Shown here: positions 8,128 to 19,406 of the stretch, one piece after another
How the letters are laid out: each line of letters starts with the position of its first letter
Numbering within the stretch: the stretch's first letter is position 1
Assembly: GCF_000240165.1 (NCBI RefSeq)
Contig: NC_017585.1
Coordinates: 372,001 to 436,000, forward strand
Reading direction: 5' to 3'
DNA: 64,000 bases
Source of the DNA: Streptantibioticus cattleyicolor NRRL 8057 = DSM 46488
GTDB lineage: Bacteria > Actinomycetota > Actinomycetes > Streptomycetales > Streptomycetaceae
Notes under the pieces: model-generated
What the model was told of the DNA's origin: nothing
Seen by the model: the letters and a program-made list of their open reading frames with translations, nothing else
The model's database searches: none
Made by a program: the position numbers and the translations under genes

Positions 8128-9287
8128 ACCCCCATCTCGCACCGGTCCAGGTCCCCGATCCGGCGGCGCTGGCCAGGTTGCAGCGACTGTGCGACATCAC
8201 CGAGCCGTACGCCGCCGGCGAGGAGGCCGACGCGCTCTTCGCCGACGCGATGCGCGAGGTCCACGACTGGCACGCGCGGCGCGGTGACTTCTTCCGCGCC
8301 CTGCTGGCGGCCCCGGCCCCGACCCGCCCCACCGTGGGCGCCGACGTGCTCGCCCCGCTGGTGCACGCCACGTTCTTCAAGCGGCACGAGGTCCTGTCGA
8401 TCCCGCGCGAGGAGGTCGCGCTCCATCTGACCTCCTCCGGGACGACCGGCCAGAAGTCGCAGATGTTCTTCGACACCTGGACGATCCGCGCGGCCCAGCG
8501 CATGGTCGCCCGCATCTTCGACCACTACGGCTGGATCACCCCCGACCAGCCGGTCAACTACCTGCTGTACAGCTACGAACCGGCTCCCGGGCTGCGCCTG
8601 GGCACCTCGTTCACCGACAACTACCTGTGCGACTTCGCGCCGGCCCGGCAGGTCGTGCACGCGCTGCGGCACACCGGTTCCGGCCACGAGTTCGACGTGC
8701 ACGGCTGCGTCGCCACGCTCCAGCGGTTCGCCGAACAGGACGTGCCCGTGCGCATCCTGGGGTTCCCGGCGTTCCTCCACTTCACGCTGGAACGGATGCG
8801 GGCGATGGGGCTGCCGCCGCTGCGGCTGCCCGCCGGGTCGCTGGTGGTGCTCGGCGGCGGCTGGAAGGGGCACGCGGACCGCCAGTTGCCCAAGGAGGAG
8901 TTCTACGCCGAGGTCACCGAGCGGCTCGGGATACCCGGCGACCGCATCCGCGACACCTTCGGCTCGGTGGAGCACAGCGTGCCGTACGTGGAGTGCGCCC
9001 ACCACCGGCTGCACGTACCCGTGTGGTCACGGGCCGCGGTCCGCGACACCGGGACGCTGCGCCCGCTCCCCTACGGCGAACGCGGCTTCCTCCACCTGGT
9101 CTCGCCGTACATCACCTCGGTGCCCGCGCACAGCGTGGTCATGGGTGACCTGGCCTCGCTCCACCCGGGTTCGGAGTGCCCGTGCCCGTCGCCCACCGAC
9201 TGGTTCACCGTCCACGGCCGCGCCGGGGTGAGCCGCAACCGCAGCTGCGCGGTGGCCGCCGCCGAACTGATGAAGGGAATGTCGTGA
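8124..9287 (+). CDS. LuxE-like acyl-protein synthetase
   Basis: A 387-residue member of the LuxE branch of adenylating enzymes. In luminous bacteria LuxE activates a fatty acid with ATP, carries it on a C-terminal cysteine and passes it to the reductase LuxC. Here the ATP loop is LTSSGTTGQKSQ, SLVVLGGGWKGH lies mid-protein, and the C-terminus keeps the family signature GRAGVSRNRSCAVAAAEL with Cys375 at the acyl-carrying position. The ATG overlaps the GNAT stop by 4 nt, and the next gene is a LuxC homologue, so the LuxE-LuxC pairing is preserved. No luxA, luxB or luxD homologue is present. Confidence 0.88.
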   Translation: MNPHLAPVQVPDPAALARLQRLCDITEPYAAGEEADALFADAMREVHDWHARRGDFFRALLAAPAPTRPTVGADVLAPLVHATFFKRHEVLSIPREEVALHLTSSGTTGQKSQMFFDTWTIRAAQRMVARIFDHYGWITPDQPVNYLLYSYEPAPGLRLGTSFTDNYLCDFAPARQVVHALRHTGSGHEFDVHGCVATLQRFAEQDVPVRILGFPAFLHFTLERMRAMGLPPLRLPAGSLVVLGGGWKGHADRQLPKEEFYAEVTERLGIPGDRIRDTFGSVEHSVPYVECAHHRLHVPVWSRAAVRDTGTLRPLPYGERGFLHLVSPYITSVPAHSVVMGDLASLHPGSECPCPSPTDWFTVHGRAGVSRNRSCAVAAAELMKGMS

Positions 9288-16958: not shown

Positions 16959-17534
16959 TCAGGGACCGGGGACGGAACGGTACCCGCCACCGGCCGGCGG
17001 CTCCCAGGCCGCGGCCGGGAGGCGCTGGCCGTGCACCGCGGGGACGGCCGACCGGTTCTCGGCCGTCAGCACCCCGGCGATGGAGCCGAGGGCGGTGGCG
17101 GCGAGCGCGATGAAGCCGACGGTGAGGGCGAGGGCGGCGGACCGCAGTTCGAGGGCTCCGGTGCGGCCCTGGGTGCCGACGGCGACCGGCTCCGGCACCG
17201 GTCGGGCGCCGACGGCGGCCACGGGCGGCTCCGGCGGCGGTGACGGCGTGGCCGCCGGTTCCCGGCGGCCGAGTCGGGCGGCCACCTCGCGCCAGCGCTG
17301 TTCCCACTCGGCGGGGTCGCCCCCGCAGGCGGTGACGTACGCCAGCGTCACCGCCAGCGACGGCAGGCCCAGCCCTCGCGCGGCCTCCGACAAGGTGGCC
17401 CCGGAGTAGTGGGCGTGTTCGGCCATGGTCCGGTAGGACGGGTTGCCGGCGGCCTGGCGGAGCCGACGCAGCTCCAGGGCGAACCGTTGCGCCGGGCCGG
17501 CCGACGGGTCGATGGGTCGTTCGGGTCTGGGCAC
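16959..17534 (-). CDS. XRE-like helix-turn-helix protein with one membrane segment
   Basis: 191 residues. The N-terminal helix-turn-helix (about 17-75) includes RLRQAAGNPSYRTMAEHAHY and SGATLSEAARG. A Pro-rich linker leads to a single membrane helix (ALALTVGFIALAATALGSIAG, about 133-153) and a short tail. This cytoplasmic HTH plus one helix is common in Streptomyces and suggests a membrane-tethered regulator or scaffold. The GTG start has GAGGAG upstream. Its target is unknown. Confidence 0.75.
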   Translation of the reverse strand: MPRPERPIDPSAGPAQRFALELRRLRQAAGNPSYRTMAEHAHYSGATLSEAARGLGLPSLAVTLAYVTACGGDPAEWEQRWREVAARLGRREPAATPSPPPEPPVAAVGARPVPEPVAVGTQGRTGALELRSAALALTVGFIALAATALGSIAGVLTAENRSAVPAVHGQRLPAAAWEPPAGGGYRSVPGP

Positions 17535-17765
17535 TGTTTCTCCTCGGTTGCGCGCCGGTGAGAGGTTGCCGCCTTCCCGCTACGACCACGCATGCTACGC
17601 ATCCGCCTGTCATCGGGATGTAACTCAGGTCACCAGAGCGCCTTTTGGCTTGTCTGGAAGGCTGCCTGTCTTCCAACGCCCGTGGGTTGCCGGGCGCAAA
17701 ACCCCATCAATGGGGTGCGGGCTGTCATCCGCCGGGGCCGAAGGCGCCGCCTACCGTCGGCGGAT

Positions 17766-18089
17766 GTGGACGTACGAGAAGCGATCAGAGAAGAGACCAC
17801 GCTCGCCCCGGTGCCGCTGTCCGCGGCGCCGGAGGTGAACCGGCTGCTGGCGAGGGCCGGTCTCGGCACGCTGCGCCCCGACGACGTGGTGGCGCTGCCG
17901 GGGCGCAACGACAACTGGTCGGGGCCGACGACCGGGGGACACCACGTCTTCGTCAAGCGCATCGGGGGTCCGGCGCGGGAGGCGCGGCGCAGGGTGGAGC
18001 GGGCGCTCGCCTTCGAACGCCTCGCCTGCCGCCGGCCCCCGGACGATCTGCTGTGGCAGCCGTGTCCGGGGTGGGACGAGGACGACCGG
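17766..18089 (+). pseudogene. Phosphotransferase N-terminal fragment
   Basis: About 108 codons from a GTG at 17766 read as the start of an aminoglycoside-phosphotransferase-fold protein: LPGRNDNWSGPTTG (glycine-rich nucleotide loop), HHVFVKRIGG with the likely ATP-binding lysine, and a helix RRVERALAFERL. The coding pattern stops abruptly near 18089 and the frame then runs into arginine/glycine-rich shadow sequence, so the catalytic half (HxDxxxxN and DxD) is missing. Directly downstream, in another frame, lies the C-terminal part of a flavin-type oxidoreductase. A deletion joining two formerly neighbouring genes explains this best. I believe the GRNDNW-type N-terminus matches phosphotransferases of class V lanthipeptide clusters, but this is from memory. 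Confidence 0.6.
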
Positions 18090-18729
18090 CATTGCGGTCG
18101 CCGAGTACGCCGAGGCGGTCCGGGCGCTGCTGGCGGGCGGCCGGGTGGAACGGGAGGGCGCCTACGTCACCGTGCGGGCCGAGCTGCCGCCCTTCGACCA
18201 CCCGCCGGTGGAGATCGGGCTCGGGGTGCTGCGGCCGGGGATGGCGCGGACCGCCGGGCAGGTCGCGGACGCGGCCATCACGTGGCTGGCGCCCGCCGCC
18301 TATCTGCGGGACGTGCTGGTGCCGGCGCTGGAGGCGGGGGCGCGGGAACGGGGGCGGGCGGCGCCCAGGGTGGTGTCGGTTTTGCACGCGGCGCTCACCC
18401 GGCCCGGCCGTGACCCGTACCTGCTGGCGTACGCCTGCTCGCACAACCACCTGGGCGCCCCGCACTACACCGACATGCTGCGCCGCGCGGGGCTGGCGGT
18501 GGACCCGGCCGATCCGAGGGCCGGGGCCAGGGCGCTGGTGGACGGCGGTGTCTTCGCCTCCGGCGGCCCCGGTGAGGTGGCGGACGCGGTGGCCGCGTTG
18601 CGTGCCGCGGGGGCGGACGAGGTGGTGGTGAACGTCAGCGGGGTCGCGGCCGTCGAGGGGTTCCGCAGCGCGCTGCGCGACCTGGAGGAGATCCTGGAGG
18701 CGGTGGCCGGCCGCCCGGGGGCCGGGTGA
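18088..18729 (+). pseudogene. Luciferase-like (LLM) oxidoreductase, C-terminal fragment
   Basis: About 213 codons with good coding character, beginning without its own start at GIAVAEYAEAVRALLAGG and including VEIGLGVLRPGMAR, DAAITWLAPAAYLRDV and EVADAVAALRAAGADEVVV. This is the C-terminal two thirds of an F420- or flavin-dependent LLM oxidoreductase; the N-terminal third of the barrel is absent. An internal ATG at 18145 could start a 194-residue product, but it would lack much of the cofactor site. It follows the truncated phosphotransferase in a shifted frame at about 18088, consistent with one deletion removing the 3' end of one gene and the 5' end of the other. Confidence 0.7.
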
Positions 18730-18802
18730 GCGGCGGATGCCGCCGGGAGAACGGGACGCCCTGGCCGGCGTCGGCGGATCGCACGGCCAGGGCGGTTCGG
18801 GG

Positions 18803-18826
18803 AGGGACCCGCGGGCGCGGGTCCCT
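18803..18826. terminator. Terminator hairpin
   Basis: A perfect 10-bp stem (AGGGACCCGC with GCGGGTCCCT) and a GGGC loop lies 7 nt beyond the isochorismatase stop and may also stop transcription from the left. Confidence 0.75.
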
Positions 18827-18833
18827 TCGTGGA

Positions 18834-19406
18834 TCAGCCCTTGAGCAGGCTGAGGATGGCCTCGGTCGAGTCGACCTCGCCGAGCCGCGGGAAGATCTTC
18901 TCGACGCTGTGCTCGTGGGACTGCGGGTCCCGGTCGGTGGTGGCGTCGTGGGCGATGGTGACGTGGTAGCCGTGCTCGTAGGCGGCACGGGCGGTGGACT
19001 CCACGCCGATGCTGGTGGCGATGCCGGCGAGCACGATGCCGGTGACCCCGCGGCGGCGCAGCTGGACGTCGAGTTCGGTGCCGTGGAAGGCGCCCCAGTG
19101 CCGCTTGGTGATCACGATGTCGCCGGTGGTGTCGCCGAGTTCGTCGACGAAGGTGGCGAAGCCCTCCGGCAGCGGGGCCTTGGGGCCGGGCGCGGTGGTA
19201 CGGCCGGTGGGCAGGTCGCCGCCGTCGTCGGACCAGTGCACGCGCACCAGGACCACGGGGAGCTTGCGGGCGCGGAACGCGTCGGCCAGCTTGGCGGCGT
19301 TGGCCAGCACCCCGTCCAGCGGGTGGACGGTGGCGCCGGCGGCGATGCCTTTCTGGAGGTCGATCAGGACGAGTGCGGTGTTGTCGTCGAGCACGGTGGC
19401 GGGCAT
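18834..19406 (-). CDS. Isochorismatase-like hydrolase lacking the usual cysteine
   Basis: 190 residues with the cysteine-hydrolase fold: ALVLIDLQKG (Asp16) and VITKRHWGAF (Lys101) match two members of the usual Asp-Lys-Cys triad. The third position reads GIATSIGVESTAR, with Gly134 where amidohydrolases have the nucleophilic cysteine. Such members are either isochorismatase-like enzymes that do not use a cysteine or have another activity, so an amidase call would be wrong. The ATG at 19406 lies next to a tandem repeat and the MarR gene on the same strand. Confidence 0.85.
   Translation of the reverse strand: MPATVLDDNTALVLIDLQKGIAAGATVHPLDGVLANAAKLADAFRARKLPVVLVRVHWSDDGGDLPTGRTTAPGPKAPLPEGFATFVDELGDTTGDIVITKRHWGAFHGTELDVQLRRRGVTGIVLAGIATSIGVESTARAAYEHGYHVTIAHDATTDRDPQSHEHSVEKIFPRLGEVDSTEAILSLLKG

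What the first reader, a model, noticed from the sequence alone, without database searches (positions are those of the whole stretch)
17766..18729. Deletion scar joining a phosphotransferase to a luciferase-like oxidoreductase: possible RiPP cluster remnant
The N-terminal 108 residues of a kinase-fold protein run directly into the C-terminal 213 residues of an LLM oxidoreductase in another frame at about 18088. Class V lanthipeptide clusters (lexapeptide, cacaoidin type) contain a phosphotransferase-like protein (LxmK) and an F420-dependent reductase of the LLM type (LxmJ). The remnant may mark a lost cluster, and related strains may still have it intact.
Basis: inference. Interest (0 to 1): 0.6.

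Follow-up and report, generated by a model that had tools for sequence, protein, structure and literature searches.

The report
Remnant of a lost lanthipeptide cluster
Two broken genes joined end to end on the megaplasmid of an antibiotic-producing soil bacterium are what is left of a class V lanthipeptide gene cluster whose other genes are gone; it is a clean gene fossil rather than a new system.

Summary
Confirmed. Window 17766-18089 encodes the first ~108 residues of an LxmK-type lanthionine synthetase subunit (NF038156 positions 1-85 of 347, E 1.3e-22). At 18086-18091 it runs out of frame into the last 212 residues of an F420-dependent LLM reductase of LxmJ's family (TIGR03564). Same-length pieces of ten intact LxmK score 74-88 bits; the window scores 80. 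In the same bacterial family, 35 of 42 strong LxmK places have an LxmJ homologue within 20 kb; on one strand, LxmK-then-LxmJ is the commoner order (20 of 27). In 14 loci of that order the missing interval is 2.4-6.1 kb and always holds the HopA1-type partner. Searches of the window's genome found no HopA1/LxmY, LxmX, precursor or second LxmK, so the cluster is dead. The window matches the Streptantibioticus cattleyicolor megaplasmid; a second record (NC_016113.1) is identical across the junction, which speaks against an assembly error. Both fragments keep their conserved residues, so the loss looks recent (inference). LxmX usually lies outside the LxmK-LxmJ interval, so at least one further loss is likely.

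The parts
17766..18089 (+). N-terminal fragment (about 108 residues) of an LxmK-type (SprPT-type) class V lanthionine synthetase subunit; about three quarters of the model (positions 86-347) are missing
   Evidence: NF038156 positions 1-85/347, 80.4 bits; same-length pieces of 10 of the 25 LxmK homologues fetched score 74.4-88.3 bits; 20 of 21 conserved columns kept
18086..18091 (.). deletion junction; the reading frame shifts by +1
   Evidence: alignment boundaries; identical in NC_016113.1
18091..18729 (+). C-terminal fragment (212 residues plus stop) of an LxmJ-type F420-dependent LLM reductase; the N-terminal part (model positions 1-98) is missing
   Evidence: TIGR03564 positions 99-265/265; 50-58% identity to the five named relatives found with it, each with an LxmK homologue in the same locus; 59 of 64 conserved columns kept
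16959..17534 (-). HTH_31 regulator, divergent from the LxmK fragment; possibly the former cluster regulator (uncertain)
   Evidence: PF13560; standalone homologues lie under 1 kb upstream of the LxmK match in three relatives, L052, L096, L097, but of the four proteins aligned with it the closest (L098, 52%) has no LxmK or LxmJ match in its 13 kb

Best explanation
This is the scar of a class V (LxmK/SprPT-type) lanthipeptide cluster on the Streptantibioticus cattleyicolor megaplasmid. In the ancestor, lxmK and lxmJ lay on the same strand in that order. A deletion, put at 2.4-6.1 kb from relatives, removed the C-terminal three quarters of LxmK, the adjacent HopA1-type partner (LxmY type), in some layouts also the precursor genes, and the N-terminal part of LxmJ, and left the two ends joined out of frame. 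LxmX, decarboxylase and precursor were not found in the genome either, so at least one further loss on the flanks is likely. Nothing here can make a lanthipeptide. Shown: identity of both fragments, the out-of-frame join, no partner genes found in the genome, a second record with the same junction. Inferred: ancestral order, deletion size, number of events, recombination as the cause, loss of function.
For: LxmK and LxmJ-family assignments with truncation controls. 35 of 42 LxmK places at E 1e-10 or better have LxmJ within 20 kb: 20 K then J on one strand, 7 J then K, 8 on opposite strands. In 14 of 25 fetched loci the order is K then J, with a homologous gap of 2,377-6,144 nt. The LxmJ fragment falls with 13 K-then-J rows at 87/89 support (not a starred branch). 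Own genome: no second LxmK, HopA1 or CypD over cut-off, no LxmA-leader match at E 1, no LxmX-model match at E 0.1, no precursor-model match at E 1; on held-out loci the LxmX model finds 15 of 15 and the precursor model 11 of 16. Two records agree at the junction.
Against: In 5 of 25 fetched loci the order is J then K, and these five are the best LxmK-fragment hits of the family search. No starred branch holds the window in either tree; its place in the LxmK tree is weak (49/80). One K-then-J locus (L052) falls with the J-then-K rows in the LxmJ tree. LxmX lies outside the K-J interval in 13 of 14 K-then-J loci, so one deletion is not enough. 7 of 42 LxmK places have no LxmJ within 20 kb and 46 of 81 LxmJ-like places have no strong LxmK. 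No relative with the same flanks and an intact cluster was found. The two records carry the same strain's sequence, so they test the assembly, not the population.
Confidence: 0.92

Rival explanations
1. The ancestral cluster was a related RiPP that also uses the SprPT/SprH3 (LxmK/HopA1) pair but made a non-lanthipeptide, such as a thioviridamide-like AviCys or merely dehydrated peptide.
For: PMC7794033 section 9 (read) warns that not all clusters with this gene pair need specify lanthipeptides.
Against: The fragment scores like LxmK pieces of loci whose full proteins pass the class V equivalog cut-off (10 of 10). An LxmJ-type reductase stands beside it; LxmJ reduces a dehydroalanine of lexapeptide and its homologue is proposed to act in cacaoidin (PMC8068269, passages seen).
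Confidence: 0.12
2. Assembly or sequencing error: the strain really has an intact cluster, and the missing stretch was collapsed or dropped.
For: No reads could be examined.
Against: A second record of different length (1,809,491 against 1,812,548 bp) is identical at the junction. The genome is listed at 100% completeness, yet HopA1, LxmX and another LxmK were not found in it.
Confidence: 0.02
3. The two fragments came together by rearrangement (for example a tandem duplication of a J-then-K cluster followed by deletion, or an inversion) rather than by a simple deletion in a K-then-J cluster.
For: The five best LxmK-fragment hits are from J-then-K loci L043-L047, and loss on the outer sides is needed anyway.
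Against: In the LxmJ tree the three J-then-K rows long enough to be used form a 100/99 clade without the window. Simple deletion needs fewer steps.
Confidence: 0.12
4. The leftover LxmJ piece (ORF 18145-18729, 194 aa) or the LxmK-frame ORF is retained for a function of its own.
For: Both fragments keep most conserved residues and a coding-type codon pattern.
Against: Part of a TIM barrel and the N-terminal end of a kinase fold are unlikely to fold or act alone (general knowledge); a recent loss explains the preserved sequence as well.
Confidence: 0.04

Closest known systems
Class V lanthipeptide clusters: lexapeptide (lxm), cacaoidin (cao), pristinin A3 (spr)
   Same: An LxmK/SprPT-type gene and an LxmJ/SprOR-type reductase gene side by side; sprOR co-occurs with sprPT in 64.62% of cases in Streptomyces (PMC7794033 Table 4).
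   Different: Here both genes are truncated and joined out of frame. HopA1/LxmY, LxmX, a CypD-type decarboxylase over cut-off and a precursor were not found in the genome; the protease and transporter genes of such clusters are not beside the fragments (the window's one ABC match is 40 kb away at 57.8-58.5 kb).
HTH_31 - 218 aa - LxmK - HopA1 - 47-aa precursor - LxmJ - decarboxylase - LxmX clusters of three relatives (L052, L096, L097)
   Same: K then J on one strand (homologous gap 2,558 nt in L052); precursor between HopA1 and J; an HTH_31-like protein upstream.
   Different: In the window the HTH_31 gene points away from LxmK and no 218-aa gene stands between them.
Thioviridamide-type clusters
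   Same: They share the SprPT/SprH3 gene pair (PMC7794033, passages and section 9).
   Different: No thioviridamide-specific gene was sought here; the LxmJ fragment points to the class V side (inference).

Membership tests
LxmK (NCBIfam NF038156) | score over the curated cut-off of 315 bits for the whole protein | tested here: not met
LxmK (NCBIfam NF038156) | conserved N-terminal columns | tested here: met
   20 of 21 columns at least 90% conserved in the homologues are kept
LxmJ-type F420H2-dependent reductase (MSMEG_4879 family) | best NCBIfam match TIGR03564, and an LxmK gene beside it | tested here: met
   TIGR03564 E 2.7e-17, 63.3 bits, positions 99-265; below the 234-bit cut-off, as a fragment. 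LxmJ has this domain according to PMC8068269
Functional class V lanthipeptide cluster | HopA1-domain partner (LxmY/SprH3) | tested here: not met
   best match in the genome 11.9 bits, E 0.745, cut-off 22.7
Functional class V lanthipeptide cluster | LxmX-type protein | tested here: not met
   no match at E 0.1 in the genome; the model finds 15 of 15 held-out loci; the label LxmX is mine, by elimination
Functional class V lanthipeptide cluster | precursor with LxmA-type leader | tested here: not met
   no NF038146 match at E 1 and no match at E 1 to an 11-row precursor model; that model found 11 of 16 held-out loci, so a divergent precursor could be missed
Functional class V lanthipeptide cluster | intact LxmK | tested here: not met
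   the fragment is the best match; the next best is 30.2 bits
Class V cluster remnant | product of the ancestral cluster contained lanthionine | not testable with these tools
   no intact orthologue found; one genome of the genus is held

The most novel reading that the evidence does not exclude
The S. cattleyicolor megaplasmid recently lost a class V lanthipeptide that its close relatives still make, and this megaplasmid site is a place where such clusters are gained and lost; sister strains would hold a class V peptide not yet described.
Probability: 0.2. Interest if true: 0.4.

Novelty: new member of a known kind. Interest (0 to 1): 0.27.

Why it matters
It is a well-bounded example of how a class V lanthipeptide cluster dies: a cut through the core enzyme gene and the reductase gene, with the surviving ends still well preserved. 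It tells genome miners that an LxmK or LxmJ hit at this site is a pseudogene, not a cluster, and it points to relatives of this strain as places to look for an intact one.

Tried and rejected
Assembly error: rejected through a second record and because the missing genes were not found elsewhere. Unrelated kinase plus unrelated LLM enzyme: rejected.

Empty-site test: 12.5-kb stretches round the closest homologues of the right-hand neighbour (isochorismatase 18834-19406) were taken from 10 relatives. MarR and/or MFS homologues lie beside it in 8 of 10; LxmK or LxmJ in 0 of 10; the window's left-hand genes in 0 of 10. No empty or intact orthologous site could be defined.

HTH_31 as cluster regulator: three standalone homologues lie upstream of LxmK, but related HTH_31 stretches occur in 167 of 388 genomes (own included) at E 1e-18, mostly in long open frames among the rows listed (the list was cut), and of the four proteins aligned with the window's the closest has no LxmK or LxmJ nearby (L098). 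Left undecided.

Microhomology at the break could not be tested without the parental sequence; the repeats found in 17400-19000 do not bear on it. No tRNA in the window. Literature: lanthipeptide + class V + pseudogene + gene cluster + Streptomyces gave 0 papers; lanthipeptide + gene cluster + degenerate + remnant + Streptomyces gave 1 review (listing only); cattleya + lanthipeptide gave 17 papers, 15 listed, none about this locus by title (listing only).

Caveats and dropped rows. In some searches the query label 'X?' is the HopA1 protein (LxmY type) and 'Y?' the LxmX-type protein; the labels were provisional and turned out swapped. HopA1 was checked with Pfam in 2 loci (L055, L058) and by similarity in the others. 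In one search one column (H109 of the LxmK fragment) was misplaced; it was dropped. Of the 22 LxmJ homologues, L045, L046 and L053 were too short (cut by the end of the stretch) and were left out of the LxmJ tree (19 homologues plus the window); L043, L044 and L047 are cut at their N-terminal end but were kept. In one search, 13 LxmK rows weaker than E 1e-10 were set aside, one of which (G066) has LxmJ 2.6 kb away; of the 7 strong LxmK places without LxmJ, G393 most likely was not in the LxmJ sample of 388 genomes (one search shows LxmJ 6.4 kb away there), and G135 and G279 have LxmJ-like genes on other contigs.

Full report
What is there. The stretch 17766-18729 holds two gene fragments in different frames. 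The first, GTG 17766 to about 18089, matches NCBIfam NF038156 (class V lanthionine synthetase subunit LxmK) at model positions 1-85 of 347 with 80.4 bits, E 1.3e-22. The second, 18091-18726 with its stop at 18727-18729, matches TIGR03564 (F420-dependent LLM, MSMEG_4879 family) at positions 99-265 of 265, E 2.7e-17, and Pfam Bac_luciferase. PMC8068269 (passages seen) says that LxmJ and Cao12 contain that same MSMEG_4879-family domain. Homology to LxmK runs to residue 107-108 and homology to LxmJ starts at the first codon of the second piece; the join is at about 18086-18091, with a +1 frame shift.

Is the LxmK label fair for a fragment? The curated cut-off (315 bits) cannot be reached by 108 residues. 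As a control, N-terminal pieces of the same extent from 10 of the 25 LxmK homologues fetched score 74.4-88.3 bits. All 10 full-length proteins given to the model pass 315 bits (388.9-472.8), as do L055 and L058 (440.9 and 409.0). The window's 80.4 bits is what a cut LxmK gives.

Neighbourhood in relatives. The LxmK fragment alone matched 51 of 394 genomes of the family, the own one included. Of 42 LxmK places at E 1e-10 or better outside the own genome, 35 have an LxmJ homologue (E 1e-30) within 20 kb: 20 K then J on one strand, 7 J then K, 8 on opposite strands; 7 have none. Conversely 35 of 81 LxmJ-like places have a strong LxmK nearby, so LxmJ alone is not specific; PMC7794033 (section 9 read) likewise reports SprOR orthologues in other lanthipeptide clusters. 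Of 25 loci examined in detail, 14 are K then J, 5 J then K, 3 on opposite strands, 3 without J in the stretch.

What was lost. In the 14 K-then-J loci the stretch homologous to the missing DNA is 2,377-6,144 nt long. A homologue of the HopA1-domain protein (LxmY/SprH3 type; Pfam checked in L055 and L058) follows LxmK in all 14. Precursors lie inside the K-J interval in 3 of the 14 (L012, L013, L052) and in the later-fetched L096 and L097; in 7 of the 14 the precursor found by similarity lies upstream of LxmK instead. PMC7794033 Table 4 gives 99.49% co-occurrence of sprH3 with sprPT in Streptomyces, so an LxmK without HopA1 is abnormal. The window's genome (8,095,515 bases in 2 contigs, listed 100% complete) has no HopA1 over cut-off (best 11.9 bits), no LxmA-leader match at E 1, no CypD over cut-off (best 28.5 bits), no second LxmK (next best 30.2 bits), and no match to models of LxmX (E 0.1) and of the precursor (E 1). 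On held-out loci the LxmX model finds 15 of 15 and the precursor model 11 of 16, so the LxmX absence is firm and the precursor absence less so.

How many events. LxmX lies upstream of LxmK in 8 of the 14 K-then-J loci, downstream of LxmJ in 5, and was not found in 1 (L058). The decarboxylase lies outside the K-J interval in 10, inside in 1 (L057) and was not found in 3 (L011, L058, L062). One deletion between K and J would therefore normally leave LxmX. Since it is gone too, and ordinary genes come up directly (HTH_31 on the left; isochorismatase by Pfam, then MarR-like and MFS-like genes by my reading, on the right), at least one further loss is inferred. The ancestral order K then J is favoured by the LxmJ tree (window with 13 K-then-J rows, 87/89, not starred; the fourteenth, L052, falls with the three J-then-K rows) but the LxmK tree hardly places the window (49/80). 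Against it, the five best LxmK-fragment hits are from J-then-K loci.

Age. Both fragments are free of stops in frame and show coding-type G+C by codon position. The LxmK fragment departs from 1 of 21 and the LxmJ fragment from 5 of 64 conserved columns, inside the range of the homologues (0-3 of 16-22; 0-15%). So there is no sign of long decay; the break looks recent compared with the divergence of the family (inference).

Where it is and whether it is real. A search of plasmid records found NC_016113.1, plasmid pSCAT (1,809,491 bp) of Streptantibioticus cattleyicolor NRRL 8057 = DSM 46488, 100% identical over 2,461 bp, so the window is taken to be this strain's megaplasmid. The window's own replicon is 1,812,548 bp, so it is another assembly; over 22,461 bp the two differ by three single-base gaps at window 8321-8327 and nowhere near the junction. 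PMC10434180 (passages seen) lists two Streptomyces cattleya plasmids, pSCAT and pSCATT, with 16 and 15 clusters. That the two records come from independent sequencing projects is my recollection, not a call.

Regulator next door. The HTH_31 gene 16959-17534 may be a survivor: standalone homologues lie under 1 kb upstream of the LxmK match in three relatives (G317, G135, G213), in the order HTH_31, 218-aa protein, LxmK, HopA1, precursor, LxmJ, decarboxylase, LxmX. But the window gene points the other way, related stretches are common, and of the four proteins aligned with it the closest has no LxmK or LxmJ match in its 13 kb. Undecided.

Verdict. It is a pseudogene remnant of a known kind. The open and mildly interesting point is whether sister strains keep the intact cluster.

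Noticed in passing
L052:8624-8764, L096:7495-7635, L097:6502-6642: Three relatives share a compact class V-type layout with a 47-aa precursor (leader like LxmA but below the NF038146 cut-off, 15.7-18.9 bits against 25) between HopA1 and LxmJ, and an HTH_31-like plus 218-aa gene pair upstream of LxmK.
   Followed up: partly
L013:8367-9622 (Virgisporangium aurantiacum): Six small ORFs with LxmA-like N-terminal ends lie in a row between HopA1 and LxmJ, a multi-precursor class V-type cluster; of the five scanned, four match the LxmA leader model, all four below its cut-off.
   Followed up: partly
L092:4884-5666: An LxmJ homologue in relative G055 aligns only in pieces in different frames, with LxmK, HopA1 and a weak LxmX match on another contig (L093): a possible second broken lxmJ.
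   Followed up: partly
window 8321-8327: The only differences between the window and NC_016113.1 over 22,461 bp are three single C bases extra in the latter, a likely sequencing disagreement in G+C-rich DNA.
   Followed up: no
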